Assembly: GCA_025499625.1 (NCBI GenBank)
Contig: JAFMVD010000047.1
Span: 1-47,009 of the forward strand
Length of the DNA stretch: 47,009 bases
Reading direction: 5' to 3'
From: Carboxylicivirga fragile
GTDB lineage: Bacteria; Bacteroidota; Bacteroidia; Bacteroidales; Marinilabiliaceae
The position numbers were made by a program, and so were the translations under genes. Position 1 is the first letter of the stretch; each line of letters opens with the position of its first letter. Shown here piece by piece: positions 28,516-44,238 of this stretch. Below the pieces are notes generated by a model, which was not told the DNA's origin, did no database searches, and saw only the letters and a program-made list of their open reading frames with translations.

Positions 28516-28566
28516 TGGTTATTTTTGGCTTTCACTAATGAATCATTTTTTTTATCACCTCGTAGA

Positions 28567-28606
28567 GCAAGAACAAGCGTTTTTGTATCACAAAAACATA
28601 TCTTGC
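28567..28606 (+). other. candidate oriT: hairpin plus nic-like sequence
   Basis: GTTTTTGT-ATC-ACAAAAAC (28579-28597) is a perfect 8-bp hairpin nested inside GCAAGA...TCTTGC (28567-28572 with 28601-28606). Just beyond it TATCTTG/C (28599-28606) fits the MOBP/IncP nic consensus YATCYTG^Y, with nicking predicted between 28605 and 28606. It lies in the 202-bp gap ahead of the mobC-relaxase pair, the usual oriT place. Not tested against a known Bacteroidota oriT. Confidence 0.5.
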
Positions 28607-28717
28607 CTGTACTTCGTTAGAGATATCCTTCATCTATTTCTAAAAAGAAAAAAGCAACTAATAAAAAAGGAAAAGGGGACATACCTCTTTTCCTTTTACG
28701 TTTTGGATTAGGCATAA

Positions 28718-29401
28718 TCAGCCTCCCACTTTAGCAGCCTTACTTTGCTTTTGTGTTTCCGATTTCTCTTGTTTTTGCCCTGCCTTTTTCTCCTGCTTAA
28801 AATCAGAAAAGCGAATATTTCGTTCTGCCGGATCAATTTGAAGCGCTGCTGAAAATTTCTTATCATTCCGACCCGTCATGCCTTTCAATTGCACCTTCTC
28901 ACCATTGCTTAGTTTCTCCTTCTGAGAGGCTGTCAGTGTAACTCCCTTAATTCTATCAGCCACCTGGATGTTCTTTTGCTTAAGGGGTATGATCTCATTG
29001 GTTTTTGAATCAATACCAATGTAGTATTTATCCTTCTTGCCGTTAAAGTCTTGCATTTCTAAAGCCTTACCTAAATTACGATCATTAATCAAAGCTGATT
29101 TTTCATCTTTGGTGAAGGTATGGCCCATGAAACTATCTGGAATATGCAGGCGCTGAATGGGATGAATCCTCACCTTCATCTCCCCTTCTTCCTTTTGAAG
29201 GCGTATTTTAGCCGGTATACGATAGCTTTCATCATTGATTTTGGCATTAACGGTATAAAGCTTTTGTGAGCGAAAACCGTTCAAAAAATCAGTTAATTCC
29301 TTTTGCTCCATCTTGGTGATAAAATCTCGTTTAACACCTGCCTTTTCAAGCTTATCCAAGGGTACCTCTTCTAATTTGTAACGTGTGTTTTGTTCCATCA
29401 T
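28718..29401 (-). CDS. DUF4099/DUF3945-type element protein
   Basis: A 227-residue basic protein. DUF4099-like start (YKLEEVPLDKLEKAGVKRDFI) and DUF3945-like repeats: HTFTKDEKSALINDRNLGKALEM, GVTLTASQKEKLSNGEKVQLKGMTGR, and FSAALQIDPAERNIRFSDF, then a Lys/Gln/Glu-rich tail. Proteins of this kind are common beside mobilisation genes in Bacteroidota elements; their role is not known. It lies 29 bp downstream of the coupling protein gene in the same direction. Confidence 0.75.
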   Translation of the reverse strand: MMEQNTRYKLEEVPLDKLEKAGVKRDFITKMEQKELTDFLNGFRSQKLYTVNAKINDESYRIPAKIRLQKEEGEMKVRIHPIQRLHIPDSFMGHTFTKDEKSALINDRNLGKALEMQDFNGKKDKYYIGIDSKTNEIIPLKQKNIQVADRIKGVTLTASQKEKLSNGEKVQLKGMTGRNDKKFSAALQIDPAERNIRFSDFKQEKKAGQKQEKSETQKQSKAAKVGG

Positions 29402-29430
29402 ATCTGTATTTATGGTTCAACATTAAATGC

Positions 29431-31353
29431 TTAGTTATGGCCGTTTATTCGCTTTTGACAAATGGCTTGAATGTCATTGTAGATGCGGGTTCTATTTCGC
29501 TGAAGAATAAGTGCTTTGTTATCAAAATGGTAGTAGACTGGCATCGATACAGTTGGCTTATATCCCTTCGTATCAACTTTAATTAGCGCATTGAAATTTT
29601 TTCGCTCGATGGGGTACTTAAAACTATCAGCCACCTGTCCAATCATATGACCTTGTGGCAAAGTGGCCATCTTTCCCTCAGGCACTAAAAAATCCATCTG
29701 TGTTGAAAAGGTAGAGGACTGTGTGCTTCTATTGATACTGAGAGATTGCCGCTCTTGCAGTACTTTGCCCATACGATTCTGCATGTATCTGGCTGTTTCC
29801 CCAGAGGCTTGACCCGAGAACACATTGCCAATATTGGTCAGTATCGCATTGGCGGCTTCTTTGCCGTAATCTCGAATAAGTTGATCTATGGTTTGTATAC
29901 CAAGTAATGTTGAAATACGATTACTTCTGGCTGTTGCAATCAATGTGTCCAACCCCCTAAAATAAATAGTCGGTAACTCATCAAATATTAGTGAAGACGC
30001 TTGTTGATCTTTTTTATTGATGATCTTCAGCATACGCGTAATAAACAATGACAAGACTGCTCCATATATTTCAATACGCAATGGGTTATTGGCCAGACAA
30101 AGCACCTTTGGGGATAATGGATTATTAATGTCTAATGAAAAGTCATCTCCCGAGCATATCCAGTAAATTTCTGGAGTAATAATTTTCGAAATGGCAATCT
30201 TCAAACTACCCAACTGCCCTTCCAGCTGTTCCTGAGCTCCACGGTGATAGGCATTGATAAAAGGATTAATAATATTAACCACATCTTGTTCTGTCCCCAT
30301 GACATCAAAAAGTTCTTCATAATCCAACTGCAAAAGTTCGATAGCATGCGGCAGAGTGCAGAAACGTCCACCTTCATAGCGTTTTAAAAACCAAATGACA
30401 GCTGCAAAAAAGGTCACGGCTGATTCTGAGAAAAACTCACCTTGTTTACGAATCCATTCACGGTTCAGGTTATACAAGATGGTACGAGATGCTTCAAAGG
30501 CATCTATTGGACTATCCATGAGTTCAGGTGCCAAGGGGTTGCACCTTAGGCTTTTTTCAATGTCATCTAGATTGATTACGCAAAACTGGGTTTTCATTGG
30601 CAAACTACCATTAACCCTTTCACGCAAGAAGCGACTATAGGCCAATTGGGATAGATCAGGGAACTTAAAATCATAGACACACATAGCAAAACCTTTTTGC
30701 AGATGCTGGGTAATGAAAGGCTGAACTACGCTATATGACTTCCCCGATCCTGGTGTTCCAATTACCATGCTCGCCCGAAAGGGATTAACCACATTAATCC
30801 AGCCTTGTCTTTCTTTTTGTTGATGCACATAGCTAATGGGAAGATTAACCGACCAATGATTGTATTTCAAGTCTTCTTCTTGCAGAAAGCTTTCATTGCC
30901 TTCATTAAACCGATCTTTCATCAGGTTTACATTGATCAACTTAGATACATTGTCAAAGCCAACATTTAGCATCACAAAAGACCCCACTGAGAGAATGATA
31001 TAGGCCAATACTTGAGAAGGCAAAAGCAGTATGCTAATCCAATAAAAAAACAAGCCTGTCAATATCTGAAGTACAATGGTGGTAACACTTAAGTCTGGTT
31101 TCTTCTGCGCTTTGGTTCCCATACAAGTTACTAGCAGTATCAGTGAGCAGACTAGTTTTGACAAGGTGATATCGGATAAAAAACGCAGTTTCAACAAGCG
31201 TTCAAATACCACATCCAATCCTTTGAGGTAAAATTTATGCGCCACAAAGTAATCCAAACAGGTAAGGTAGATAGATAAAAAAAGCAGCATATAACTCATA
31301 AAGCGAAAGGCTTCATGCAGGCGTATAAGTTGTGTTCCCTCTGTTTGAGACAT
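29431..31353 (-). CDS. type IV coupling protein (VirD4/TraG-type ATPase)
   Basis: A 640-residue inner-membrane ATPase that links the relaxosome to the secretion channel. N-terminal membrane helices at about 18-40, 62-80, 90-115 and 116-140. Walker A GTPGSGKS at 199-206 (VIGTPGSGKSYSVVQPFI), a Walker B type segment ASSLIFDELPTIYF, and ATARSNRISTLLGIQTIDQL with the TraM-recognition region downstream (GNVFSGQASGETARYMQNRMG). In CTnDOT-like elements this gene is often called mobC or traG-like; I leave the symbol empty. It is downstream of traN with a 38-bp gap. Confidence 0.9.
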   Translation of the reverse strand: MSQTEGTQLIRLHEAFRFMSYMLLFLSIYLTCLDYFVAHKFYLKGLDVVFERLLKLRFLSDITLSKLVCSLILLVTCMGTKAQKKPDLSVTTIVLQILTGLFFYWISILLLPSQVLAYIILSVGSFVMLNVGFDNVSKLINVNLMKDRFNEGNESFLQEEDLKYNHWSVNLPISYVHQQKERQGWINVVNPFRASMVIGTPGSGKSYSVVQPFITQHLQKGFAMCVYDFKFPDLSQLAYSRFLRERVNGSLPMKTQFCVINLDDIEKSLRCNPLAPELMDSPIDAFEASRTILYNLNREWIRKQGEFFSESAVTFFAAVIWFLKRYEGGRFCTLPHAIELLQLDYEELFDVMGTEQDVVNIINPFINAYHRGAQEQLEGQLGSLKIAISKIITPEIYWICSGDDFSLDINNPLSPKVLCLANNPLRIEIYGAVLSLFITRMLKIINKKDQQASSLIFDELPTIYFRGLDTLIATARSNRISTLLGIQTIDQLIRDYGKEAANAILTNIGNVFSGQASGETARYMQNRMGKVLQERQSLSINRSTQSSTFSTQMDFLVPEGKMATLPQGHMIGQVADSFKYPIERKNFNALIKVDTKGYKPTVSMPVYYHFDNKALILQRNRTRIYNDIQAICQKRINGHN

Positions 31354-31391
31354 GACAATTAGTTAATTGATTTAGTATTGTGATCTTTTAC

Positions 31392-32192
31392 TTATTGAAG
31401 GTAAGCCGCTTTGACAATGGCTTTATTATTAAAATTTAGGGTTAAATCGCGCCCTGTGTAACCCGAGGTTTGCTCTTTTAACAAGACTTCCACTTCTTTA
31501 TGTTTTGGGATGCTAAAGGATTTAAAAACCAGGATAACAATACTTGTATATTGAGGCTTAATGAAAAGTATCTTCTGAGAAACCTGGATTGGTTCAAGCA
31601 TATATTCCTGTACATTGGCTGCTTTCTTTGGGCGTTTGTCTCGCATTAAAAAAACCGGGCACTCCCCTCGATAGATCAGGTTAGAGTTATTCTTCACGTT
31701 TAGTTTCATAAAAAGTAAATCATGCTTAACACAAATACCTTCCAATACCAACTCAATATCATTTTCTTTAACCTTGCTAATTGAACGTTTCAATTCCATT
31801 GTCTGCATTCTATTAATAGCACTTTGAATCTTATGAAGGGGCATCGCTGATTGTGACAATCCTAAGAAGGCTTCACCCTTAAAATCATTAAGGTTTATCT
31901 TCAAAGCACTCGTTTTATGATAACTCACTTCAAATGCATAGAGTTTATCCTGACATACAAGGGTCAAAGAAGACGTATCCGTAAATATCTCAAGTGCTTT
32001 CAATCGAACTATATTGGGATAATCGTCAATCGTTTCGGCTATTAGTTTTTCTGCATTACCCACCTGCACATAACTAACGGCAGCTGGACAAAGCAGGTGA
32101 ACAACCGTTTGCTCATTGACTTTAATTAGGTTATTTGCCGATACTAAGGCACTAATCAAAAGGGCTTGTATAAGAATTATAGATACTTTCAT
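31392..32192 (-). CDS. traN: conjugative transposon TraN-like protein
   Basis: A 266-residue protein with a signal peptide (about 1-19). It matches the DUF4138/TraN family: VNEQTVVHLLCPAAVSYVQVGN, VRLKALE, LYAFEVSY, LVLEGICVKHDLLFMKLNVKNNSNLIYRGE, and IVILVFKSFSIPKHKEVEVLLKE. TraN is a periplasmic or outer-membrane part of the mating channel, comparable to VirB9. It lies 27 bp downstream of traM on the same strand. Confidence 0.85.
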   Translation of the reverse strand: MKVSIILIQALLISALVSANNLIKVNEQTVVHLLCPAAVSYVQVGNAEKLIAETIDDYPNIVRLKALEIFTDTSSLTLVCQDKLYAFEVSYHKTSALKINLNDFKGEAFLGLSQSAMPLHKIQSAINRMQTMELKRSISKVKENDIELVLEGICVKHDLLFMKLNVKNNSNLIYRGECPVFLMRDKRPKKAANVQEYMLEPIQVSQKILFIKPQYTSIVILVFKSFSIPKHKEVEVLLKEQTSGYTGRDLTLNFNNKAIVKAAYLQ

Positions 32193-32219
32193 AATGTGGC
32201 TTTTACTGGTCTAGATTGA

Positions 32220-33353
32220 TTAATCATTTTGAAGAATGACAACGGTGTTTTTTCTGAGGTTCACCTTTTTTAACCTGACTCGTTTCATCATGTTTTTACT
32301 TAGATCATTGGCGGCATTTATTCCCATATAAGCCATTGGATCGTCTGTTGGTGTCAGCAAAACAGATGGATTAATATCACCTGCCACATCCTGATAGACT
32401 TTTCGTGCTACATTATCCGGCACATACAAACCTTTAATACCATCCATATCATAGACACTAAGTTTAACTGCTAGGAAATTATCTCGTTTGGGAATACTGC
32501 TAATGTATATCTGCAATCGTTCATTATCTGTCTTACACAGTCCATACACCAGGGTATTGGCTTTGATTTGCTGGCCATTTATTTCTGTATCGTTTAAAAG
32601 GCGCAACATGATACGATTGCCTGTCATGACTTTACTATCTTCTACTATTTGAGCTTTTAGGGATTGATGAGCATTGCTATTCTTGTTAAAACCAGATGTC
32701 GTTTTAATCTTTACTTCAAAGCCTTTCTGTTTTCTCCTATGTAGCTTTTCATATTGGTTTAGCACCATTTGCTTTTCTTGCAACTGCATTTGCATGGAGT
32801 CTTTCTGGCGGATCAGCTGTTCATGCTCGCTCAATAGATCTTGTAATTCCTCCAGCTCAATTGGTTGGCTACGAGCGTGTCTTTTCTGTTTAGCCTTCGG
32901 GGGCCGTTGACCGCTTATTCGTTTGGCATCACTTATATTTTGGGCATTTTGACTCTCATGACTGACGCTTCCTTGTGCTTCATTCAAAGCTTGTCTTGAT
33001 CGCTCCTCTTGTATTTTAATACGCTCCATCAAGACCTCTGTAGCGCCTTGTTTATCAAGATTCTTCACCTGCTGAATGGTTGCATCACTTATTGTCGTAT
33101 CCACATTGAGTTCAACAATAGTTGGTGTTTCCACCGTTTCCATCTGCTGATAGGCTTCTTTTTTATCCATTATTTTGATATTCCGATTTGCATCGGGTAA
33201 TTGATAATTGGCCCCATTGAATGTTTTGTTTGCAGATTTAATGCTTGCTTGTCCTTGACCTCCTCCAAGGATGTAAAAAATTAGCACCACAAAGGGCAAT
33301 GCCAATAAGGGTAGAATAAACAAGCCTTTATTTTTTTTGATGAGTGTCTTCAT
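32220..33353 (-). CDS. traM: conjugative transposon TraM-like protein
   Basis: A 377-residue protein: short cytoplasmic start, one transmembrane helix (about 11-31), a Gln/Lys-rich linker with a long coiled coil (about 165-210, LEELQDLLSEHEQLIRQKDSMQMQLQEK in overlapping heptads), then a C-terminal beta domain (NRIMLRLLNDTEINGQQIKANTLVYGLCK, YVPDNVARKVYQDVAGD) as in VirB10-like TraM proteins. The start codon lies 26 bp inside the end of traL, so translation is coupled. Role: scaffold of the mating channel across the envelope. Confidence 0.88.
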   Translation of the reverse strand: MKTLIKKNKGLFILPLLALPFVVLIFYILGGGQGQASIKSANKTFNGANYQLPDANRNIKIMDKKEAYQQMETVETPTIVELNVDTTISDATIQQVKNLDKQGATEVLMERIKIQEERSRQALNEAQGSVSHESQNAQNISDAKRISGQRPPKAKQKRHARSQPIELEELQDLLSEHEQLIRQKDSMQMQLQEKQMVLNQYEKLHRRKQKGFEVKIKTTSGFNKNSNAHQSLKAQIVEDSKVMTGNRIMLRLLNDTEINGQQIKANTLVYGLCKTDNERLQIYISSIPKRDNFLAVKLSVYDMDGIKGLYVPDNVARKVYQDVAGDINPSVLLTPTDDPMAYMGINAANDLSKNMMKRVRLKKVNLRKNTVVILQND

Positions 33354-33624
33354 GGATTTGCTGATTTAAAAGTTGTTCAAACGAATCGACTGGCAGTTCA
33401 AATGGACTGTCCATCTTTAAACTATCTTCTTGATGCCTCAAGGTGTCTAATTGTAAAACTCCTTGATGGCCAAGTCCCATTTTATCACCTATGAAAAAGG
33501 ACAGTAAAAACAAGACAAAGAATACTCCCAGAATACTCAGCCATTTAATTTGGCGTTTACCCTTACTTAAAGTCTTGTCCTTCTGTTCCACTCTGATGAG
33601 CCACTGTTTAATCTTCTTATTCAT
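33328..33624 (-). CDS. conjugative transposon TraL-like (DUF3989) protein
   Basis: The start is chosen at 33624 (MNKKIKQWLIRVEQKDKTLSKG), just after the traK stop at 33644; the open frame extends back to 33687 but the extra 21 residues overlap traK and look unlike family members. This gives 98 residues with one transmembrane helix (about 30-47, WLSILGVFFVLFLLSFFIG) and a soluble C-terminal tail. It lies in the traK-traL-traM order seen in CTnDOT. TraL assignment rests on size, membrane topology and order. Confidence 0.65.
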   Translation of the reverse strand: MNKKIKQWLIRVEQKDKTLSKGKRQIKWLSILGVFFVLFLLSFFIGDKMGLGHQGVLQLDTLRHQEDSLKMDSPFELPVDSFEQLLNQQIHEDTHQKK

Positions 33625-33643
33625 CACTTGTGTTTTTAATGAA

Positions 33644-34270
33644 TTAAAAGTTGCTTCGCTTTCGGGTTTCGATGTCACTGTTATCATTAATAATCCAGCC
33701 TTCGATTAAAAAGCCATGGGTATTATTATCGGTTCGTGAGATATTGCGCAAATGACCACTTGTTGATAATTGGCGTATCGTAATATTGGACTTACGCACA
33801 ATCTTTTGCTTACCGTGGAGTTGGAAGGTGTATGGATAAGATGAAAAATCCACCTGCACCGAATCACTACTTAAAGTCATGCTGATATCAGAGGCTATCA
33901 CCCGATTATAAAGGTTATTCTCCTTATAAGTACGGTATTGTTTCATAGCACTTTTATCTGCCAGATAGAGCGCCTCTCGTATGTTATTTTCGATATAATC
34001 CTTATCCGGCTCCAGAGTGAAGAAGAGCTCATGAAAACGTTTAACATGGTTCTTGGCTTCTGCGCTTCGATTCTCCGATATATCCGCTCTTAAGGCCAGC
34101 AAGAGCGATTGCCCATTATCCAAGACATATATCTTCTGGCGAGATTCCTTTACCATTTGTAATGAGGTGATGTAAGTATAAAGGCCGGCACCAAGGCTTA
34201 AAATTGTCGTTACCAAAAGCACATAGACGGTGTATCGAAACTGCCGTTGTATCTGAATAAGTTGTTGCAT
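33644..34270 (-). CDS. traK: conjugative transposon TraK-like protein
   Basis: A 208-residue inner-membrane protein with one N-terminal transmembrane helix (about 13-33) and a periplasmic domain; its features FHELFFTLEPDKDYIENNIREALYLAD and VDFSSYPYTFQLHGKQKIVRKSNITIRQLSTSG match TraK (VirB8-like) proteins. These nucleate channel assembly. 140 bp separate it from traJ, in which I see no gene. Confidence 0.85.
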   Translation of the reverse strand: MQQLIQIQRQFRYTVYVLLVTTILSLGAGLYTYITSLQMVKESRQKIYVLDNGQSLLLALRADISENRSAEAKNHVKRFHELFFTLEPDKDYIENNIREALYLADKSAMKQYRTYKENNLYNRVIASDISMTLSSDSVQVDFSSYPYTFQLHGKQKIVRKSNITIRQLSTSGHLRNISRTDNNTHGFLIEGWIINDNSDIETRKRSNF

Positions 34271-34410
34271 AATTAGACATTAGATTGTTAGACCTTTAGA
34301 TATCAACACTAAGAGGCTGAAGTTTTTTTACTATTGACTATTCGAGGCATAATGAGCTCATGTGTTTTCGCACATCATGTCAATCAGCATTTGGCCGGGG
34401 CGTCACTCTA

Positions 34411-35346
34411 CTATTTCAGTGCACCTTTAGAAACAGCCATCATAGCAGCTGTTCTGAGCATTCGACCACCTCCTGTATTAGTTCCTGAAGCATTCACAAT
34501 CCAGGTCGCTATCTTAGGTACCATCACCAAACCACAGATACCACAGACCGGAACAATCAAACCCGAGACAAAAAACATGGATGCTTGATAAACGCCCATC
34601 TGATTAATCAGGTTGATCTCTATATCGAGCACATAGATCAGCAACTGTTGGGTCAATGACAAAATGATTAAAGCAATGGGCAAATAAAGATTAACATTGA
34701 TAAAACGAGCTATCCATTGTAGGTAGTTATCCTGAAAACCATCAAAAATAGAAATGGAAAAAACCAGGGGGCCAAAGATGATCAGAAGCACACAAAAGAT
34801 GGTGCGTAAAAAAGCAATCAGATAGACCACCACTTCAAATGCCACTTCGGTCACTTGGCGTAATCCTTCCATAATGTAATAACCTATTTGATTGCCTAGG
34901 GCACGACCACTGACAATATTGTAGGTAGTAAGAATGACGTTAATGCCCCTGTCCCAAAGATCGGCTTCCTTGTCCCCATTCTCCTGAAAACTTGGCATAT
35001 CAGTTAATAAAATGGACATCTGCTTTTCTTCTAATTTTTCTTTTACGTGTTCTTGTTGATTGCTATAGATCTCTTCTGACAAATAGGTTAAGCCTTTTGT
35101 TGGACTCAATAAAAGATGAACAAATGGCCCCCAGAAAGTAATGACTAACACGAAAGCAAAAGGTCTTAACAATGGTAATATAAGGATGGGATTATCTGCA
35201 ATGAGTTGTTCAAATATACGCTTGGCTATAAATAAAAAAGCTGCTATCCCACCAATGGCACGAGCCATATCCACTAATAAACGCGCATGCTCAATGCCTA
35301 TCTGAATCAAGTTATCTGTAAATACAAAGAAGTTTTCAATATTCAT
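34411..35346 (-). CDS. traJ: conjugative transposon TraJ-like (VirB6/TrbL-type) membrane protein
   Basis: A 311-residue polytopic membrane protein with about six helices (around 30-45, 55-85, 175-200, 205-225, 240-262 and 265-290). Family features: ARAIGGIAAFLFIAKRIFEQL near the start, FLRTIFCVLLIIFGPLVFSISIFDGF, WIARFINVNLYLPIALIILSLTQQLL. VirB6-like proteins form the inner-membrane part of the channel. It is 51 bp after the unrecognised secreted gene at 35398. Confidence 0.88.
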   Translation of the reverse strand: MNIENFFVFTDNLIQIGIEHARLLVDMARAIGGIAAFLFIAKRIFEQLIADNPILILPLLRPFAFVLVITFWGPFVHLLLSPTKGLTYLSEEIYSNQQEHVKEKLEEKQMSILLTDMPSFQENGDKEADLWDRGINVILTTYNIVSGRALGNQIGYYIMEGLRQVTEVAFEVVVYLIAFLRTIFCVLLIIFGPLVFSISIFDGFQDNYLQWIARFINVNLYLPIALIILSLTQQLLIYVLDIEINLINQMGVYQASMFFVSGLIVPVCGICGLVMVPKIATWIVNASGTNTGGGRMLRTAAMMAVSKGALK

Positions 35347-35397
35347 GGTGCTAAAATGTTTGGTATTAGTGGTTTCGTTGATGTGCCAATGCTGTAT

Positions 35398-36102
35398 CTA
35401 TTGCCCCATAAAGTCAAGATTATTACCCGATTGATTCAACATCTGGTAATAACTAAACTTTTGAGTGGAATAAGTGATTGATCCCAATAGGTTTTTTAGT
35501 TCTTGCTGAACTTCACCCATTGCCTTTATTTTATCTGCTTGCTCAGCATCCAAGTGGTTAATCATCAGATAAGCTTCCATTTGTTGTCTAATGGCATTTT
35601 CAAAGATTTCTGTTATCTCAGAAGGCACATTTTGCTGCTTGAGGTAATCCAAAGCTTGCAGGTTTAATTGAAAATTCTGCGTTAAACCATATACATCAGG
35701 AATATTCATAAGTCTACTATCTCGCAAAAAGCCTTCAATAATCTCGTGTGCCTCCTGATTGAGCATTATACCGCCCACTGCATCCAAACACTTACCCAGA
35801 GTTTTCTTATCCAGACTTTTTAATATCAATTTGATCGCATCATTAACCCCCATATGTAAATAGCCTTTAACATCATAAACAGGTTCTGAATTCGCATAAT
35901 AGTAATAGTGACTTGGATAAAGGCGAACAAAACTATGCGCTACAGGTGGTAACCAACCCTTCCAGCAAACAAAACTTAAGGGATAATCATTGTTCATGGT
36001 GGGATAGCGTCCTTTCCATTTTTTAGTATCAAAGACGCTTTGAGAATAAACTTCAATACTCAAAAGTGAAATACATGTTAGTACTATAAATAGACGTTTC
36101 AT
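35398..36102 (-). CDS. secreted protein of unknown function in the tra operon
   Basis: The start is chosen at 36102 (MKRLFIVLTCISLLSIEVYSQ), which opens a signal peptide; the open frame extends back to 36147 but overlaps traI and is not signal-like. About 234 residues: an N-terminal region rich in Trp/Tyr/Pro (SFVCWKGWLPPVAHSFVRLYPSHYYYY), then a helical part with Gln-rich heptads (YLKQQNVPSEITEIFENAIRQQMEAY). No family recognised. It sits between traI and traJ, where the element may carry an extra channel or surface component. Confidence 0.7.
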   Translation of the reverse strand: MKRLFIVLTCISLLSIEVYSQSVFDTKKWKGRYPTMNNDYPLSFVCWKGWLPPVAHSFVRLYPSHYYYYANSEPVYDVKGYLHMGVNDAIKLILKSLDKKTLGKCLDAVGGIMLNQEAHEIIEGFLRDSRLMNIPDVYGLTQNFQLNLQALDYLKQQNVPSEITEIFENAIRQQMEAYLMINHLDAEQADKIKAMGEVQQELKNLLGSITYSTQKFSYYQMLNQSGNNLDFMGQ

Positions 36103-36112
36103 GGATTCAAGA

Positions 36113-36757
36113 TTAGTTGGTTTCATAAAGGCTATAATAAAAAGCAAAGGTCTTCAGATCTCCCATGCTATAGCTTTTCATATAGGAAGCATACAGAATC
36201 TTGTTATAGAGGTAACAAATGGTGCCATAATGCTGGTGCACCTGACGGTAGATGCCATTGATGACATCATAACGTGCTTTGTCATCCATGATGAAGGCTT
36301 TGTCAATGGTGATGGTACTTAGTACCTTCGTGACCAAATCGCGACTATCGGTCAGTATAATATCAAATGCTTGTAGGATGGCTGCCGCTTGCTGGGGCGT
36401 GAAATTATTATCCTGAATCAGCTTGGGTACTTTAGTGGTATAGATATCCAATATCTTATTCAACATATCACGCGTTTCCTCAATGCGTTTATAGTCTTTA
36501 ATAAGTCCTGAGACATTCTCTACGGCATCCAATAACTGCTGATCAATACCCAGTAAATCACCGGTTAATCCTTTGATATCTCCATTCAAGGCTTTAATAA
36601 GAATGTTATACCAACTCATCTTACTGAGAATACCTTTTTCTTGTATCCACAATGCTTCTCGCTGAATCCCTGCTCCCACATCAGTAACAGGTGCCTGAGA
36701 TAAAACCGTAGCTGAAAACATGATAATGAGTAGTGATAAATAAATTTGCTTTTTCAT
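36113..36757 (-). CDS. traI: conjugative transposon TraI-like (DUF4141) protein
   Basis: A 214-residue protein with a signal peptide (about 1-20, ATVLSQ). Mature part largely helical, with ALWIQEKGILSKMSWYNILIKALNGD, LDAVENVSGLIKDYKRIEETRDMLNKIL, and a C-terminal ILYASYMKSYSMGDLKTFAFYYSLYETN. This matches the VirB5-like TraI position and pattern, next to traG with a 2-bp gap. Probable periplasmic channel or pilus-tip component. Confidence 0.75.
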   Translation of the reverse strand: MKKQIYLSLLIIMFSATVLSQAPVTDVGAGIQREALWIQEKGILSKMSWYNILIKALNGDIKGLTGDLLGIDQQLLDAVENVSGLIKDYKRIEETRDMLNKILDIYTTKVPKLIQDNNFTPQQAAAILQAFDIILTDSRDLVTKVLSTITIDKAFIMDDKARYDVINGIYRQVHQHYGTICYLYNKILYASYMKSYSMGDLKTFAFYYSLYETN

Positions 36758-36759
36758 GG

Positions 36760-39162
36760 TTATAGCGTTTTAAGTAGTTTGATAAATGAGTTATGTTCTT
36801 GCATTTGTTGTAGCAAGACTTGCTTTTCTTTCTCTTCTGAGGTATAACAGTGGTATTCTTGCTTACTCACTTCCAAAGCAAAGACTCTGGAATAACTGCC
36901 CAGACCTACAAAACATTCTTTGAGTTTCCGTCCTGTGGGCAGGTTGCGGTTCACCGATAAGATCTGCTCCTTTTGGAAGTCTGTCAGCCCCAATACCTGA
37001 CTTATCTTATCGAACTTATTGGCAAACTTGCGCATGTCCAATAGAATCTTGGTATCGGCATTATTAATGATGGCATCGCGTATTATGGGACTGGAGATCA
37101 CATCCTCAATCTCCTGGGTGACCACCAAGGCTTCGCCAAAGAATTTACGTATGGTCTTGAAAAAGTATTTGATGTAATCCGCCATCTGAGGCGTGGCGAT
37201 GGCTTTCCAGGCTTCTTCAATACAGATGACTTTTCGTGTGCCTTTCAAAAGACGCATTTTCTGCATGAAGATGTCAATGATGATGAGTGTGGCCACAGGA
37301 AAAATTACAGGGTGGTCTTTGATATTATCCAGCTCAAAAACAATGAAGGGACATTGAAAAAACTCATCTGTCTGCATCTGTTTATTCAAGAGGTAATCAT
37401 ATTCTCCTCCCACGTAGTATTTGCTCAGTATAAAGAAGAATTCTCCGGTGTTAAAACACAAGCCTTTATCACCCACCAAAGCAGGTATCCATTGCTGAAC
37501 AAACTCATAGTAGCTATTGAAGCTATGTCCTTCTTGGTGCTTTTTGTAATAAGCTGTTACCGATTGGGCAATCACATCCTTATCAATTTCACTAAGCTGT
37601 GGTTTATAAATGGTGTAGAGCACCGATAAGATGGTTTGTTTTCGTTCGGTAGAAAGGCCATTATTCAGCACAAAGGGATTAAATGAAATGGGTGTCTCTT
37701 CGGTAAATTCCACATGCATGGCACCTCCTTTATCTTTCAGGTACTCATCAAGGTACTTCACCAACAACTCATAACTTCTACCCACATCAAGAAGTACCGT
37801 ATGGCAGTTATCACTCTCGGCATAATGCCTTAGAAGATGATTGGTTAAAAATGACTTGCCCGAACCGGAGCCCCCAATAATGATTTTATTACGGTTATGT
37901 ATCTGATGCTTTTCCATGGGTTCATCCGAGATATCCACTTTAACTGGACATCCATTTTGGCGATCTGAGAATTGAATAAAAAAAGGAGATTGGCTATTTT
38001 GTATGGCGCCTTCAAAATTCAGGAAACAACAAGCCTCAGGAGATTGCATCAGCATTAATTCTGTTTCGGGCAGTTGCGTGCTAGCTGGCATATTAGCCCA
38101 ATACATGAGTGGTAGGTCAAAGCTATGGCGATAGGGCAAACAGTTCATTTTGGAAAAGCTGGTGAGCACTTCACTCCTTTTTTGCTTTAAGCCATTTAAA
38201 GACTCATCAAAAAGCATCAGGTTATAATGCATTTGCACAATGGGCTCACTGCCTTGCTGAACGATTTCCAGAAAATGCTCTATCAATTCTGCATTGAGTT
38301 TATTTTCTGTAGAGAATTTTGAGAGGGAATAAATCTTTTTGTGAGCACTCTCCAACTGGCTCTTGATGACCGTTTGATTACCTACATACAAAAAGCAATT
38401 GGTGATGTGGGAAAATGGTAAACCGAAGCTAAGTGGATAAACCATTGAGACTGGCAGGTTGGTCATAGGTTCTTCCCCGCAAGGGCTCACCTCTCCTGGT
38501 ACATGATCATAATTACTCAGACTAAAGGTCTCAACAAAACTATTCATCACTTTTAAATGATCCCTAAAGTCAAGACTACCTAAAACACTCGTCTTATCCT
38601 GAAAGTTCATGCTTAGGTAACGCTGCATCAGGTGCATCATCTCATCTCTAGATAGCAGACTGCTTTGTATTCCACCTTGAAGTAATTGCGCCATTACATT
38701 GGTGCTAATTTCTTCCAGTTGGTCTTGCTCATGTTTTGCTTTCCTACGATTTACAGCTGGTTTGAAAAGGCTGGTACCTAAGAAATTTTTTAACAGGCCT
38801 GTGTTCATAAGCGAAATAAACAAATAGGCTTCATGCTGCAGGTGACTTCTGCCCTCAAAATGATTGAGGTACGCTTTATCCAAAAAGGACACTTCTACTT
38901 GATCTGTGCTTGCGTCTTGCTCCTTTGATTTAAACGATCTCTGGAGGAAATAATCCTGACGATGAAGAAGGGTTCCAGCAGGTAACATAGCAATAAGCCG
39001 CCGGAAAATATCGTGTAGCTCATTTAATGTTTCCGCACTGCAAGAAAACAATTCGGGTAGTTGCAAACGAATTCCAATGGTCATATCCAAATTACTGGAT
39101 AATAGAATATCTCCATCAAAACCCAAGACGGGCATACTTTCCTCGATGCTTTTTATCTTCAT
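36760..39162 (-). CDS. traG: conjugative transposon TraG-like (VirB4-type) ATPase
   Basis: An 800-residue ATPase that drives mating-channel assembly and pilus work. Walker A GGSGSGKS at 430-437 (KIIIGGSGSGKSFLTNHLLRHY), Walker B IEEAWKAIA near 650, and the family C-terminal segment TRKVICIEEAWKAIATPQM, KKYFKTIRKFFGEALVVTQEIED-type (read KYFFKTIRKFFGEALVV) and DKISQVLGLTDFQKEQILSVN. Length about the family norm. The N-terminal 400 residues form the TraG N-domain (GFDGDILLSSNLDMTIG, NCLPYRHSFDLPLMYWANMP). Preceded by traF with a 24-bp gap. Confidence 0.92.
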   Translation of the reverse strand: MKIKSIEESMPVLGFDGDILLSSNLDMTIGIRLQLPELFSCSAETLNELHDIFRRLIAMLPAGTLLHRQDYFLQRSFKSKEQDASTDQVEVSFLDKAYLNHFEGRSHLQHEAYLFISLMNTGLLKNFLGTSLFKPAVNRRKAKHEQDQLEEISTNVMAQLLQGGIQSSLLSRDEMMHLMQRYLSMNFQDKTSVLGSLDFRDHLKVMNSFVETFSLSNYDHVPGEVSPCGEEPMTNLPVSMVYPLSFGLPFSHITNCFLYVGNQTVIKSQLESAHKKIYSLSKFSTENKLNAELIEHFLEIVQQGSEPIVQMHYNLMLFDESLNGLKQKRSEVLTSFSKMNCLPYRHSFDLPLMYWANMPASTQLPETELMLMQSPEACCFLNFEGAIQNSQSPFFIQFSDRQNGCPVKVDISDEPMEKHQIHNRNKIIIGGSGSGKSFLTNHLLRHYAESDNCHTVLLDVGRSYELLVKYLDEYLKDKGGAMHVEFTEETPISFNPFVLNNGLSTERKQTILSVLYTIYKPQLSEIDKDVIAQSVTAYYKKHQEGHSFNSYYEFVQQWIPALVGDKGLCFNTGEFFFILSKYYVGGEYDYLLNKQMQTDEFFQCPFIVFELDNIKDHPVIFPVATLIIIDIFMQKMRLLKGTRKVICIEEAWKAIATPQMADYIKYFFKTIRKFFGEALVVTQEIEDVISSPIIRDAIINNADTKILLDMRKFANKFDKISQVLGLTDFQKEQILSVNRNLPTGRKLKECFVGLGSYSRVFALEVSKQEYHCYTSEEKEKQVLLQQMQEHNSFIKLLKTL

Positions 39163-39186
39163 GATGCGTATTGGATATTCAGTTGA

Positions 39187-39501
39187 CTATTGCTTGATAA
39201 TTTTCTTTAAAGGATGTTTCATGCTGATAAACTGTGGTAGCTGTTTGGCTATCTTTTGCTTTTGATAGGCTTCGGGTCCCATGGTACGTTGAATCTTACT
39301 CAATCGATAAAGTACAAAAAGAAGCAATGGAACCGTTAAAAAGACAGCTAACAAAGGGCTTGTCAGCAGGTAAATCACAGTGAACCCGCCAAAAGAAATC
39401 AAAACAGCGTACAGGGCTTTGTAAACTAATACACCGGAGAATCCTTTGACATAGAGTTTTGTATCTACCTTGCTGATGCGATAGTGTTTTTTGCCCTTCA
39501 T
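39187..39501 (-). CDS. traF: conjugative transposon TraF-like (DUF4133) protein
   Basis: A 104-residue membrane protein with two transmembrane helices (about 28-46 and 48-66, VLISFGGFTVIYLLTSPLLAVFLTVPLLLFVLYRL as overlapping segments) and a basic C-terminal tail. This matches the VirB3-like TraF proteins in size, topology and position directly between traE and traG. It starts 3 bp after the traE stop. Confidence 0.85.
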   Translation of the reverse strand: MKGKKHYRISKVDTKLYVKGFSGVLVYKALYAVLISFGGFTVIYLLTSPLLAVFLTVPLLLFVLYRLSKIQRTMGPEAYQKQKIAKQLPQFISMKHPLKKIIKQ

Positions 39502-39504
39502 TTC

Positions 39505-39816
39505 TTAACCAAAGAAAGCTCGGATAACAACTCCTACCAAGACTAAAAAGAGGCAAGCCCCAAACCAGCCCATCAAGGCTTTCTGGGTGTCTTGATCACC
39601 ACTTTGCCACTTGATGTATACCCGAATACCGCCAATGAGACCAACAACAGCTCCTATGGCAATTATTAAATTGGCAACGGGATCTACATAGGATTGCACC
39701 TCCGTTGTGGCTTGGTCAATACCGTCTGCAGATTGCGCAAATAGCCTTGGAAGAATATAAAGCAATCCTATGAGGATAAATAAGGATTTTCGAATGATAA
39801 CTTGCTTGTGTTTCAT
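39505..39816 (-). CDS. traE: conjugative transposon TraE-like (DUF4134) pilin-like protein
   Basis: A 103-residue protein with a signal peptide (about 1-28, LPRLFAQSADG) and two transmembrane helices (about 50-68 and 84-102) separated by KWQSGDQDTQK. DUF4134/TraE is comparable to VirB2 pilins: ANLIIAIGAVVGLIGGIRVYIKW and KALMGWFGACLFLVLVGVVIRAFFG are characteristic. It lies 12 bp downstream of an unrecognised single-helix protein gene. Confidence 0.88.
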   Translation of the reverse strand: MKHKQVIIRKSLFILIGLLYILPRLFAQSADGIDQATTEVQSYVDPVANLIIAIGAVVGLIGGIRVYIKWQSGDQDTQKALMGWFGACLFLVLVGVVIRAFFG

Positions 39817-39828
39817 GTCTTGGTATTT

Positions 39829-40203
39829 TTATGAATTAGGTATTTCTTGATTGGCGGCATAGGCCAATTGTTGGCTCATTTGAACATTGCTCATCTTAGA
39901 TGGAAGCATCATATCGTCCAGTTTAATGCCTGTTTCATCAACACCATTATCTGGTTTCAACACAAAACTATCCTCCGTATTTTCAACGGCACAAACACGT
40001 TCCTGAGGTAGTTCATCGGCTTTGACAAACTGGGTCTTCAATAGCTCTTTTGGAGCAAGGGCTTCTGACTCGAAACTTTGTTGCTTTTCCTTTCCTGTTT
40101 GTTTAACCAATAGATACAGAACAACTACTAGATAATAGATAAATAAACACAGTGCTATTAATTGAATGAACTGCAAATGGGATATCTTTTCTAATCCAAA
40201 CAT
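39829..40203 (-). CDS. single-pass membrane protein of unknown function
   Basis: A 124-residue protein with one N-terminal transmembrane helix (about 12-33, LQFIQLIALCLFIYYLVVVLYLL as segments) and a long acidic cytoplasmic or periplasmic tail (SFESEALAPKELLK, ENTEDSFVLKPDNGVDETGIKLDDMMLP). It is first in the traE-F-G operon on the minus strand and overlaps the end of the frameshifted upstream remnant by 13 bp. No family recognised; a membrane regulator or channel accessory is possible. Confidence 0.7.
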   Translation of the reverse strand: MFGLEKISHLQFIQLIALCLFIYYLVVVLYLLVKQTGKEKQQSFESEALAPKELLKTQFVKADELPQERVCAVENTEDSFVLKPDNGVDETGIKLDDMMLPSKMSNVQMSQQLAYAANQEIPNS

Positions 40204-41282: not shown

Positions 41283-41960
41283 TCACTGCCTTTTATCACC
41301 TACCTGTTTATCAAAACTGATAAGATTAAACATCTCACGCATCCGGCTTCTAAGGCGATTACCATAGATACGTTCCAATTCCGAGGCCGACAAATTACTT
41401 GTTAGGTGTGTTAACATTTTTCGATTGACAAAATGATCGTAACGACTCAATAGTATCTCTGCCATGACATTACATTCATTGCCAAAATAATGAACGGGAC
41501 GCTCCACTCCTACATCATCAAAACAGTAAACTTTTGGACAATAATTATTCGATAGAAACTGATAGGAGGAAGTGGTATATTTTGAGATTAGCTGGTAGCC
41601 TTGTTGCACAAAACTAAAGGTTATTTCTCTCGATGAGTGAATGATGTAACGTTTCTCCTTGGGGAAAAAGTTATTCAAAAGGTACATCAAACTGGTTTTT
41701 CCACAGCCCACAGGACCAACTACTAAAAGTCCTTTATCGGGGTTTAAGCCAAGTCGAATCATGTTCTCTTTATCACCGATGGCATAAACCAATAGTTTGT
41801 ATAATACACCATGGTCTTTTGTCTGCACCTTAAAGTGCATGCCATACCGTTTCTGTCCAGCATGTTCTAACCATGTCAAACAAGCTGGAAAACTATAATT
41901 CATCCAACCATTTTTCTCCCAACGCATGGTTTTATAGGGGCTCATCATAGTCTTTGTCAT
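41283..41960 (-). CDS. DnaC/IstB-like AAA+ ATPase, probable helicase loader
   Basis: A 225-residue AAA+ protein: Walker A VVGPVGCGKTS (about 78-88), Walker B YCFDDVGVE (about 145-153), sensor-1 THLTSNLS and an arginine-rich box ELERIYGNRLRSRMREMFN, all as in DnaC/DnaI-type loaders. The start overlaps the end of the upstream initiator-like gene by 29 bp, so translation is coupled. It would load the host DnaB helicase on the element's origin. An IstB transposition role is less likely because no IstA partner exists. Confidence 0.82.
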   Translation of the reverse strand: MTKTMMSPYKTMRWEKNGWMNYSFPACLTWLEHAGQKRYGMHFKVQTKDHGVLYKLLVYAIGDKENMIRLGLNPDKGLLVVGPVGCGKTSLMYLLNNFFPKEKRYIIHSSREITFSFVQQGYQLISKYTTSSYQFLSNNYCPKVYCFDDVGVERPVHYFGNECNVMAEILLSRYDHFVNRKMLTHLTSNLSASELERIYGNRLRSRMREMFNLISFDKQVGDKRQ

Positions 41961-42744
41961 TTTTTGTGGATAGATAATCTATACCATTCTCTTTTGATTT
42001 GTCAGCATATCTGGAAATGTTAAGTATCCAGTTTCTGGCAGCTGCACTCCAGTCTTTCATGGGACTCTTACCTCCTACCTTCCAACCATTGGATTCAAAA
42101 TAATTAAAAAAACGAACAGCTTCCATCTCATTAATTTCTTTCTCTTGGAAATAACTTTTAACATCTATCAGCTCAGGTTTCTTAAATCCTACTGTTTTCT
42201 TTTCTAACGGTTTTTGACCAGCTTTATCTTTGGCTTCCTCTTGCGCGCGTGCTCCATTTGTTTGTAATAGTTTATTATTGTTTTCTTTGTTTAATAATGT
42301 TTTATAGTTATTTATTAAAGGCGTATCACTTGTTTTATCACCACTATGATCAGGGGTGTTACCATCACTTATAGCACTTGTTTTATCAGTGGTTTTATCA
42401 GTGATAAAACCACCAGTATTACCATCTGAATTATCAGTACTATTATCACCGGTATTATCAAAAGTGATAATAGTGACTTTTGAACCTTGATACATGCTTT
42501 TTGATGGTTTGTATTTCACATATCCCCATGCGTCCAACTCTTTGATGGTGCGAGTATAGGTATTTATAGAACCTATCTTGGATAGCGGCATCACTTCTTG
42601 TCTGGCGATCTGCATTCCTTCAATGAACGTCAACTTATTCCAGATATGAAATAAGGCCATGTACAAGCTGATATGCCTTGGTAACACACGTTGGTCCTTA
42701 GCTAAACGATCCAAAACACTGTTTAGATGTCTAATGTAATTCAT
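41932..42744 (-). CDS. replication initiator-like protein with internal tandem repeats
   Basis: A 270-residue protein. N-terminal winged-helix-like domain (about 1-95: HISLYMALFHIWNKLTF, ARQEVMPLSKIGSINTYTRTIKELDAWGYVKY), a tetrapeptide-repeat linker (about 95-140; xD[NK][ST] units such as GDNS, TDNS, TDKT, TDKT, GDKT), an Asn/Lys/Leu-rich part, and a C-terminal phage replisome-organiser/DnaD-like segment (EAVRFFNYFESNGWKVGG, WSAAARNWILNI). It overlaps the HTH gene by 1 bp and the helicase loader by 29 bp. Domain order and neighbours resemble phage O/P-type initiation proteins; the exact family is uncertain. Confidence 0.72.
   Translation of the reverse strand: MNYIRHLNSVLDRLAKDQRVLPRHISLYMALFHIWNKLTFIEGMQIARQEVMPLSKIGSINTYTRTIKELDAWGYVKYKPSKSMYQGSKVTIITFDNTGDNSTDNSDGNTGGFITDKTTDKTSAISDGNTPDHSGDKTSDTPLINNYKTLLNKENNNKLLQTNGARAQEEAKDKAGQKPLEKKTVGFKKPELIDVKSYFQEKEINEMEAVRFFNYFESNGWKVGGKSPMKDWSAAARNWILNISRYADKSKENGIDYLSTKNDKDYDEPL
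42256..42466. repeat. twelve 12-bp tandem repeats beside an AT-rich tract (putative origin)
   Basis: Units of 12 bp start at 42323 and repeat to 42466: TTATCA is exact at 42335, 42383, 42395, 42431, 42443 and 42455, with near-matches (GTATCA, TGATCA, TTACCA) in the same register. Two opposite copies (TGATAA at 42402 and 42465) form TTATCA-G-TGATAA at 42395-42407. Directly adjacent, 42256-42320 has 9 G/C in 65 bases (86 percent AT), like a DNA-unwinding element. All of this lies within the initiator-like gene. Confidence 0.6.
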
Positions 42745-43079
42745 TACTTGAATCTGTCGGGAGTGGAAATTTTATTACTCTTCAACATTTTTTGAATGTC
42801 AGCGTATTCGTAAAACAACATACCTCCTACTCTCGTGTATGGTAAATCACCTTTAACCCTGAAATTCTGGAGTGTACCTGGTGAAATGCCCAACAGCTCT
42901 CTTACTTCAAAGCTTTTCAACCACTTTTTCGGGTTTGAACTATAGTTCTCAGCAATAATCTTTGTTAAATCTTTTAGCAAAACTTCTTTGAAATGGTTAA
43001 GATCATAAGTGGTAACAATCTGCTCCCGGTACAATTTCTCATGTCCATAACTCGCTTCCCGTTCTGATTTGAGTGCCAT
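42744..43079 (-). CDS. helix-turn-helix (excisionase/MerR-like HTH_17) protein
   Basis: A 111-residue protein with a C-terminal winged HTH of the HTH_17 type: WLKSFEVRELLGISPGTLQNFRVKGDLPYTRVGGMLFYEYADIQKML. N-terminal half helical. Such proteins act as excisionases or DNA-binding regulators of Bacteroidota elements. First gene of the replication group on the minus strand, overlapping the initiator gene by 1 bp (TAATG), and divergent from the RteC-like gene. Confidence 0.85.
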   Translation of the reverse strand: MALKSEREASYGHEKLYREQIVTTYDLNHFKEVLLKDLTKIIAENYSSNPKKWLKSFEVRELLGISPGTLQNFRVKGDLPYTRVGGMLFYEYADIQKMLKSNKISTPDRFK

Positions 43080-43310: not shown

Positions 43311-43374
43311 AATGCTAGTTATTTTTTTTACTGTCGAATCTCTTTTTTTAAATGGTTTAACCAATACTTATGTG

Positions 43375-44238
43375 ATGAAGAATGAATCGCCAGATGTTAT
43401 CCAAGCTATTTTAACAGAATACGAACAGCAAATTAGCCAAATTAAACTGAATGAATTTAATCCTCTATCTGATATTGAAAAGGGCATTCAAATCAGCAAA
43501 ATATTTATTCAACGTCTAAGAATTAAAGTGCAAGAAGGTTGCCTTACTTCTAAGGAGCATGAAATCAATTTTTTCAAGTACATTAAGCCACGAATAGTAG
43601 GAGACCTTCTCTACTATTGCTACTTAAAGGAAATTACCCACCATCGTCCTGTATGCACCATCTATGTCTTACAAGAATTTTTAGAGAAAAAACTGGAAAG
43701 ATTTAGTCATTTTTTAAAGAAGAACTTTAAATGCTATGCCTATTACAATTCTGAAGGGAATAAGAAATGTGATGAATATTATTTTGTAAGGTGTTATCTA
43801 AAAGTAGAAGACTATCATTATCATCCCTATTCAATGATAGATACGAATTTTGCCACTAGTAAGGATTATCTCTTCGCCGAATTCAGAGCTCATGAAAAGG
43901 TGATTAAATATCTGGAAGATGAATTATTAAAACTAAAAGCACAGAAGAAAAAAACCTTTAAATCACTTGAACAGTGGTTATCCCATTCACCTTTTTATTG
44001 GACCGACACCAAAGTAGCGGCCACAGAATTAATTTATGCCTTGGCAAGCTCTGGGAGTATTAATAATGGCAACGTAGATATTAAAGAACTGGCGAAGTAT
44101 GTTTGTCTGTTCTTTAACATTGATAAACTAGAGTTTTATCGTATTTATTCTGACTTGAAAATTAGGGAGAACCCCGCGGCTTTTATTGATAAGCTAAAAG
44201 CAAATTTAAGGAAGCGTATTGATGGTGATATGAGTTAG
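43375..44238 (+). CDS. RteC-like regulatory protein
   Basis: The start is chosen at 43375 (MKNESPDVIQAILTEYEQQI); the open frame extends back to 43312 but its first 21 residues are hydrophobic filler ahead of a likely transcription start. About 287 residues. RteC-family features: FIQRLRIKVQEGCLTSKEHEINFFKYIKPRIVGDLLYY, FKCYAYYNSEGNKKCDEYYF, and a C-terminal segment LYWTDTKVAATELIYAL-type (read PFYWTDTKVAATELIYALASSG) with LFFNIDKLEFYRIYSDLKIR. In CTnDOT RteC activates the excision genes; here RteA/RteB are absent from the window. Confidence 0.85.
   Translation: MKNESPDVIQAILTEYEQQISQIKLNEFNPLSDIEKGIQISKIFIQRLRIKVQEGCLTSKEHEINFFKYIKPRIVGDLLYYCYLKEITHHRPVCTIYVLQEFLEKKLERFSHFLKKNFKCYAYYNSEGNKKCDEYYFVRCYLKVEDYHYHPYSMIDTNFATSKDYLFAEFRAHEKVIKYLEDELLKLKAQKKKTFKSLEQWLSHSPFYWTDTKVAATELIYALASSGSINNGNVDIKELAKYVCLFFNIDKLEFYRIYSDLKIRENPAAFIDKLKANLRKRIDGDMS

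What the first reader, a model, noticed from the sequence alone, without database searches (positions are those of the whole stretch)
41283..42744. Lambda O-ori-P-like replication module in a conjugative element, with the origin inside the initiator gene
Seen: the initiator-like gene carries twelve 12-bp tandem repeats (42323-42466, core TTATCA, exact in six units, near in most others) with two inverted copies forming TTATCA-G-TGATAA, directly beside a 65-bp tract of 86 percent AT (42256-42320). The next gene overlaps by 29 bp and is a DnaC-like AAA+ loader. Known: in phage lambda, iterons and an AT-rich unwinding element lie within gene O, followed by the helicase loader P. Inference: the element replicates autonomously after excision from an intragenic origin. 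The repeat length keeps the reading frame, giving an xD[NK][ST] linker.
Basis: partly seen in the sequence, partly recalled or inferred. Interest (0 to 1): 0.75.

Follow-up and report, generated by a model that had tools for sequence, protein, structure and literature searches.

The report
Replication origin inside its initiator gene
A mobile DNA element in a marine bacterium appears to carry its own copying start site written inside the gene for the protein that recognises it, next to a gene for a helper that loads the copying machinery; the same arrangement recurs in related elements, a plasmid and a phage.

Summary
In detail: six exact TTATCA cores in twelve 12-bp units, two inverted copies, an adjacent 65-bp tract of 86% AT, and a 29-bp gene overlap. 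Comparison makes the origin reading much stronger. The gene belongs to a Bacteroidota family without a Pfam or NCBIfam match: predicted winged-helix N-domain, disordered linker, compact C-domain. A P-loop ORF (DnaC-like in the window) follows it in 78 of 81 loci. Linker DNA is repetitive beyond what the protein demands in 49 of 82 genes at p<0.05, against 5 and 8 for the flanking domains. Repeat sequence differs between relatives and tracks one residue of the predicted recognition helix: N61 goes with TGATA repeats in 29 of 29 genes, and column 61 ranks first of 141 in an unsupervised test. N-domain plus repeats were exchanged as one cassette in one clear case, with the breakpoint just before the AT tract. 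The module also sits on a circular plasmid record and, in part, in Polaribacter phages. It works like lambda O-P, SPP1 gp38 and above all pSK41 RepA_N. Origin activity and replication after excision remain untested.

The parts
41932..42744 (-). initiator-type gene, 270 aa, holding the proposed origin
   Evidence: ORF; model with two ordered domains; family; no Pfam/NCBIfam hit
42460..42744 (-). N-terminal winged-helix domain, residues 1-95
   Evidence: pLDDT mostly above 90; Foldseek match to 4pql (prob 1.00, E 0.087, rmsd 2.3) and 5kbj among many other winged helices
42526..42567 (-). predicted recognition helix, residues 60-73, with N61 (codon 42562-42564)
   Evidence: helices 48-55 and 60-73; residue 61 covaries with repeat class
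42323..42466 (.). twelve 12-bp iteron-like units, core TTATCA (TGATAA on the coding strand), proposed initiator binding sites
   Evidence: shuffle test; 12-bp spacing in relatives
42395..42407 (.). inverted pair TTATCA-G-TGATAA
   Evidence: inverted-word excess
42455..42470 (.). second inverted pair TTATCA-AAAG-TGATAA at the edge of the array
42256..42320 (.). AT-rich tract (86%), proposed DNA unwinding element
   Evidence: in 35 of 41 representative genes the most AT-rich 60 bp of the gene lies in the linker
42245..42254 (-). GAGCACGCGC motif just after the AT tract, read in a different frame from near relatives
   Evidence: few independent sequences; suggestive only
41989..42186 (-). C-terminal domain, residues 187-252, of unknown fold family
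   Evidence: phrog_15768 and phrog_28809 (unknown function); no PDB fold match
41283..41960 (-). DnaC-like AAA+ helicase loader
   Evidence: phrog_50 E 9e-17 and phrog_3277 E 5e-11; PRK08116 E 6e-10, below its cut-off
42744..43079 (-). HTH_17 DNA-binding protein, first gene of the three-gene cluster
   Evidence: PF12728 E 3e-8; same order in the Marivirga plasmid
43312..44238 (+). RteC regulator, divergent
   Evidence: PF09357 E 7e-55
26689..40203 (-). mobilisation and conjugation block of the element (relaxase, MobC/NikA-like, T4CP, TraM, TraG, DUF4134 and others)
   Evidence: syntenic next to the module in two other genomes

Best explanation
The three-gene cluster is a theta-type replication module. 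The initiator's N-terminal winged helix binds a repeat array that lies in the DNA coding for its own disordered linker. Binding opens the adjacent AT-rich tract, and the C-terminal domain together with the DnaC-like loader brings the host replicative helicase onto the opened strand. The linker protein itself is mainly a tether, so the DNA is free to evolve as an origin. Because the sites are in the same gene as the domain that reads them, domain and sites change, and can be exchanged, together; this would let an element change replication specificity in one step. The module most likely keeps the element copied while it is excised. Shown: gene order, DNA-level repeats, correlation between recognition-helix residue and repeat sequence, a cassette exchange, presence on a circular plasmid record. 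Inferred: physical binding, unwinding, helicase loading and replication after excision.
For: P-loop ORF next door in 78 of 81 loci; the window's is DnaC-like. Linker direct-repeat excess over synonymous shuffles: 49 of 82 genes at p<0.05 and 40 at p<0.01, against 5 and 0 (N-domain) and 8 and 2 (C-domain); inverted 17 against 7 and 5. 59 of 68 successive TGATA spacings in 29 TGATA-class genes are multiples of 12. N61 goes with TGATA repeats in 29 of 29; 17 of 22 genes without N61 have another class. Unsupervised: column 61 first (0.429) and 58 second (0.415) of 141 columns; largest value over all columns in 1000 permutations 0.287. The dyad of a sub-family covaries: 66 of 88 paired cells, reached by 5 of 5000 whole-arm shuffles. 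TAAACA in linkers of 41 representatives 92 against 29.1 expected from protein and codon use, in two reading frames. L082 against L130: 38-69% DNA identity through N-domain and repeats, 87-100% from the AT tract on. Marivirga plasmid p1 (25.3 kb, circular) has HTH_17, initiator and loader in order; of its 64 listed ORFs ten were scanned, and none of these has a known Rep domain. Polaribacter phage Freya_1 has the N-domain, repeats, AT tract and then a DnaC-like gene. Fold matches to phage initiators and replisome organizers among 25 viral matches at E 0.001 or better.
Against: No experiment. The AT richness is mostly an amino-acid effect: only 9 of 41 linkers exceed synonymous resampling at the 5% level, and the window does not (28 of 200). 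20 of 41 representatives, the window among them, lack two TAAACA words within 12 bp. 33 of 82 genes show no significant direct-repeat excess, and short-linker relatives L115, L119 and L120 have little or nothing. Shuffles and the Fisher test do not correct for relatedness. In 2 of 11 independent pairs residue 61 changed without a change of repeat class, 5 were ambiguous, 4 agreed; and a C-domain column (226, 0.276) also passes the 95% line of 0.236 in the unsupervised test. The Marivirga initiator has N61 but mostly ACAAG-type repeats (read by eye). PDB fold matches are below significance and led by other winged helices; the C-domain matched nothing. The Marivirga record also carries an integrase, so it may be an excised element rather than a plasmid.
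Confidence: 0.82

Rival explanations
1. The protein is a transcription factor of the element and the repeats are its own operators inside the gene; the loader-like ATPase does something else.
For: Phage relatives are annotated 'transcriptional regulator'; winged-helix folds match MarR and CodY in the PDB as well as Rep proteins; the covariation shows only that the N-domain and the repeats go together.
Against: A P-loop ORF next door in 78 of 81 loci, DnaC-like in the window and in Freya_1; an AT-rich tract in the linker in 35 of 41, on the C-domain side of the repeats in linkers read by eye; a conserved second domain; some relatives matching phage replication initiators; and the plasmid with no other recognised Rep among ten of 64 ORFs. 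Autoregulation could coexist with origin function.
Confidence: 0.08
2. The module is a primosome-loading site used during conjugation (for example complementary-strand synthesis in the recipient) rather than an origin for vegetative replication.
For: In this window and in G004 and G006 the cluster is beside the transfer genes; in the window it reads in the same direction.
Against: In G012 it occurs near an integrase and MobC, with no hit to the window's TraG or coupling protein in the 40 kb fetched around each of two copies; it occurs in a circular plasmid record typed non-mobilizable and, in part, in tailed phages.
Confidence: 0.07
3. The repeats are only a low-complexity protein linker that expands by slippage; the DNA has no role.
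For: In the window's array, direct repeats are not clearly beyond what the protein sequence gives; the array keeps frame and encodes a linker predicted disordered; recent duplication alone can raise direct-repeat counts above a synonymous shuffle.
Against: Inverted copies, synonymous-level excess in most relatives but not in flanking domains, covarying dyad arms, the same word in two frames, and correlation with a residue outside the linker.
Confidence: 0.03

Closest known systems
RepA_N initiators, type pSK41 Rep (PMC5703833, section 14 read, other passages seen)
   Same: N-terminal winged helix binds Rep boxes centrally within its own rep gene; the central part encoded by the origin is a linker that can be deleted when an origin is supplied; N-domain and origin are found exchanged as a unit while the C-domain stays (pPR9).
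   Different: No RepA_N Pfam match; the initiator gene is followed by a DnaC-like loader gene; C-domain unrelated by the searches made; Bacteroidota rather than Firmicutes; array of 12-bp units with TGATA, or ACAAG or GTCCC cores in other members.
Phage lambda O/P and Stx relatives (PMC7466680, passages seen)
   Same: Iterons and an AT-rich tract in the middle of the initiator gene, replication gene P next.
   Different: No lambda O Pfam match; the loader is DnaC-like (that lambda P differs from DnaC is recalled, not tested); more and shorter repeats (repeat length of lambda recalled); carried by a conjugative element.
Phage SPP1 gp38/oriL and gp39 (PMC6316719, passages seen)
   Same: Direct repeats plus an AT-rich unwinding element positioned within initiator gene 38, with helicase loader gp39.
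   Different: No direct sequence comparison was made; SPP1 has a second origin and its own DnaB-family helicase, whereas this module shows no helicase gene in the cluster.
IMEs and ICEs with phage-type replisome organizer and DnaC genes, such as Tn6104 and streptococcal IMEs, and theta-replicating TnGBS1/2 (PMC5704250, section 2.2 read)
   Same: Integrated mobile elements carrying a replisome-organizer plus DnaC-type pair, or a theta system, proposed to maintain the excised form.
   Different: Different phylum and initiator family; no intragenic origin is described for them in the section read.

Membership tests
RepA_N plasmid initiators | match to the curated sequence family (RepA_N Pfam model) | tested here: not met
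   No Pfam family at E 0.1 for the window protein; 45 family members scanned at E 0.01, no replication family
RepA_N plasmid initiators | N-terminal winged helix of the Rep NTD type | tested here: inconclusive
   Foldseek to 4pql and 5kbj with prob 0.97-1.00 and rmsd 2.3-2.9, but E 0.087-0.19 and behind other winged helices; that 4pql is the pSK41-type NTD is recalled
RepA_N plasmid initiators | binding sites and origin within the rep gene, in the linker | tested here: inconclusive
   Anatomy and covariation fit; binding and origin activity not assayed
RepA_N plasmid initiators | DnaD-like C-terminal domain | tested here: inconclusive
   C-domain alone: no PDB fold match, no meaningful profile match; single relatives match DnaD-like phrogs
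Lambda O-P replication module | repeats and AT-rich tract inside the initiator gene | tested here: met
Lambda O-P replication module | helicase loader encoded immediately downstream | tested here: met
   (loader by homology, not by assay)
Lambda O-P replication module | initiator homologous to O | tested here: not met
   no Pfam match; O-like phrog matches only in the Freya_1 C-terminal part
Integrative and conjugative element | relaxase, coupling protein and mating-pair genes | tested here: met
Integrative and conjugative element | integrase and attachment sites | tested here: inconclusive
   No PF13102 hit on the window's contig C82; relatives have one 2-4 kb from the module (G004 C9; G012 C3, C4, C5) or about 26 kb away (G006 C44); no att repeats established
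Functional replication origin | initiator-dependent autonomous replication | not testable with these tools
   needs a bench test

The most novel reading that the evidence does not exclude
A Bacteroidota initiator family without a name, shared by conjugative elements, mobilizable elements, plasmids and phages, carries its replication identity as one exchangeable cassette: a winged helix whose residue 61 (with neighbours 58, 60, 64) sets which repeat it reads, followed in the same gene by those repeats, then an unwinding tract (often TAAACA-rich) and a C-domain that stay behind. Changing the cassette changes the replicon's compatibility while keeping the loader interface.
Probability: 0.55. Interest if true: 0.75.

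Novelty: new variant of a known kind. Interest (0 to 1): 0.6.

Why it matters
It offers a candidate answer to how excised mobile elements of Bacteroidota keep themselves copied. For a Bacteroides element, CTn214, an amplified circular part has been reported, and the passages seen name no initiator (PMC10865816). I saw no description of this initiator family in the capped listings of the full-text searches made, though an unnamed family is hard to search for. The family gives a candidate origin to the base pair, a candidate initiator and loader, and a natural series of matched helix-and-repeat pairs that makes the recognition code directly testable. It would also let annotators name proteins now called 'hypothetical' or 'transcriptional regulator' and give a basis for typing compatibility of such elements.

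Tried and rejected
Low-complexity linker without DNA role: made unlikely. AT tract as a DNA-level selected feature in itself: not supported, since AT content mostly follows from the amino acids; the TAAACA word excess is beyond codon choice. TTATCA as a universal signal: rejected; it is one class of three. A second TTATCA cluster at the loader's 3' end (41293-41323, three sites): noted, not clearly beyond chance (three-site places also exist at 36721 and at the start of the window). DnaD fold of the C-domain: looked for, not found. Viral contigs with the single protein: nothing confirmed; with the alignment: 80 kept loci of 559 confirmed, of which only L136 was used in the counts. Polaribacter phage literature: listing only.

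Rows dropped before counts: L062 (truncated N-terminus) left out; the 8 of 92 genes with tied repeat class dropped before the table (84 left, 51 after removing near-identical ones); one search used 29 of the 34 non-redundant TGATA-class genes, because the unnamed same-genus dyad rows were not in that script; L060, whose open frame runs on into the loader, was cut at residue 253. Eleven unnamed same-genus relatives were added, with L093 and L098 (Saccharicrinis) also. The repeat classes were chosen after looking at the sequences; the column test does not use them. The upstream-HTH and loader censuses use loose motifs.

Full report
What is there. The window is contig C82 of a 5.6-Mb genome. Same-genus relatives are Carboxylicivirga by their record titles (contig lengths agree with those of G002, G004, G006 and G012), so the window's genus is inferred from them. 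Positions 26689-40203 hold a mobilisation and conjugation block: relaxase, MobC/NikA-like protein, coupling protein, TraM, TraG, DUF4134. Then come three genes on the minus strand, HTH_17 (42744-43079), the gene of the finding (41932-42744) and a P-loop ATPase (41283-41960), and a divergent RteC. Genes before about 25 kb look chromosomal (inference).

Check of the observation. All stated features are present: six exact TTATCA cores in one 12-bp phase, two inverted copies, a 65-bp tract at 86.2% AT and a 29-bp overlap. Eight of 77 TTATCA sites of the window fall in 136 bp. With the protein held fixed and synonymous codons shuffled, inverted words in codons 91-165 are in excess (6, 3 and 5 of 5000 shuffles for 6-, 7- and 8-mers). 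Direct words over the array alone are not (500, 641, 1496 of 5000), because the protein itself repeats.

The family. Counting the window's own genome, relatives were found in 11 of 14 same-genus genomes, 23 of 71 family genomes at E 1e-20 and 13 of 393 order genomes at E 1e-15. Further: 206 confirmed genome loci of which the best 80 were kept, one plasmid record and 38 phage records, none covering 80% of the query. The protein matches no Pfam family (45 members) and no NCBIfam family. It matches phrogs of unknown function, and single relatives match replication-initiation or DnaD-like phrogs. AlphaFold gives an ordered winged-helix N-domain (1-95), a linker below pLDDT 50 (102-178) and an ordered C-domain. 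Foldseek lists Rep N-domains 4pql and 5kbj in the PDB behind and among other winged helices, none significant, and phage replication initiators and replisome organizers among 25 viral matches at E 0.001 or better. The C-domain alone matches nothing in the PDB.

Gene order. A P-loop ORF follows the initiator in 78 of 81 loci, starting between 109 bp before and 560 bp after its stop. In the window it is DnaC-like (phrog_50, E 9e-17). A loosely defined upstream HTH motif was listed for 74 of 81. In G004 and G006 the module is syntenic with the same transfer block; in G012 two fetched copies lie near MobC without that block. PF13102 integrase domains lie 2-4 kb away in G004 and in three places in G012, and about 26 kb away in G006. 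The Marivirga plasmid p1 has HTH_17, initiator and loader, the last across its record start; ten of its 64 listed ORFs were scanned, showing an integrase and no recognised Rep. Polaribacter phage Freya_1 has the N-domain (43.5% over 92 residues), repeats and AT tract, a different DnaD/O-like C-terminal part, and a DnaC-like gene next.

DNA-level signal across the family. In 82 genes (81 loci and the window), linker direct repeats exceed synonymous shuffles at p<0.05 in 49 (0.01: 40); the N-domain control gives 5 (0) and the C-domain control 8 (2). Inverted repeats: 17 against 7 and 5. In 41 representatives the word TAAACA occurs 92 times in linkers against 29.1 expected from protein and codon use, in two reading frames (66 and 26), with 31 of 53 gaps at 8-10 bp; Ile is ATA in 109 of 187 linker codons against 96 of 457 elsewhere. 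The most AT-rich 60 bp of the gene lies in the linker in 35 of 41, yet AT content itself exceeds synonymous resampling in only 9 of 41, and 20 of 41, the window included, lack two close TAAACA words. In 29 TGATA-class genes, 59 of 68 successive spacings are multiples of 12. A sub-family (11 same-genus and two Saccharicrinis rows, 11 distinct sequences) has instead a 35-bp dyad whose arms covary, 66 of 88 cells, reached by 5 of 5000 whole-arm shuffles. These shuffles do not correct for relatedness.

The domain and the repeats go together. Repeats fall into TGATA, ACAAG and GTCCC classes. In 51 non-redundant genes N61 goes with TGATA in 29 of 29; of 22 without N61, 17 are of another class (Fisher 1.8e-9, not corrected for relatedness). 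Column 61 has the highest excess mutual information of 233 columns, 0.85 bits against means of 0.07 (N-domain) and 0.03 (C-domain); several of the next columns lie in the linker itself and follow from the repeats. Without classes, correlating shared linker 6-mers with residue identity after removing overall N and C identity, column 61 is first (0.429) and 58 second (0.415) of 141; over 1000 permutations the highest value at any column was 0.287. Column 226 of the C-domain (0.276) also passes the 95% line of 0.236. Residue 61 sits at the start of the predicted recognition helix 60-73. Of 11 phylogenetically independent pairs, 4 agree, 2 do not, 5 are ambiguous. The Marivirga protein, outside the test set, is an exception by eye; Freya_1 fits.

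Cassette exchange. L082 and L130 are 38-69% identical in DNA through N-domain and repeats, then 87-100% from the AT tract to the end, with TGATA and ACAAG repeats respectively. Among gene pairs with C-domain identity of at least 0.8, the repeat class is the same in 81 of 81 when N identity is 0.8 or more, in 4 of 12 at 0.6-0.8, and in 0 of 3 below 0.6; pairs share members, so these are not independent. The same exchange is described for pPR9 against pSK41 (PMC5703833, section 14 read).

Interpretation. The N-domain most likely binds the intragenic repeats, the AT tract opens, and C-domain plus loader deliver the host helicase. Binding is inferred from covariation, unwinding and loading from analogy with lambda, SPP1 and pSK41. 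Replication of the excised element is a further inference; [quoted passage not shown]

Verdict. It is a new variant of a known kind, the intragenic-origin initiator, in an unnamed Bacteroidota family closer in design to RepA_N than to lambda O. Its special value is the built-in, testable match between one helix residue and the repeat sequence.

Noticed in passing
window 25149-25421 and 26228-26500: Two HU-like genes (name by eye) in a 300-nt direct repeat, 85% identical, at the edge between chromosomal genes and the transfer block; possibly related to the element's boundary.
   Followed up: no
window 41293-41323: Three further TTATCA sites (one inverted) within 31 bp at the 3' end of the loader gene; not clearly beyond chance.
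   Followed up: partly
window 42245-42254: GAGCACGCGC after the AT tract is kept in near relatives but read in another reading frame in the window.
   Followed up: partly
L035 24560-24960 (Marivirga plasmid p1): Intergenic region between initiator and loader with recurring GCGGGCCAGC-type blocks, seen by eye.
   Followed up: no
L060 3001-4380: Initiator and loader are fused in one open frame in one of three similar modules of the same genome; assembly error or real fusion unknown.
   Followed up: no
L036 3989-4879 (Polaribacter phage Freya_1): Same N-domain, repeats and AT tract joined to a different, DnaD/O-like C-terminal part.
   Followed up: partly
window 26002-26100 and 45077-45170: Other AT-rich places (86% or more) near both ends of the presumed element.
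   Followed up: no
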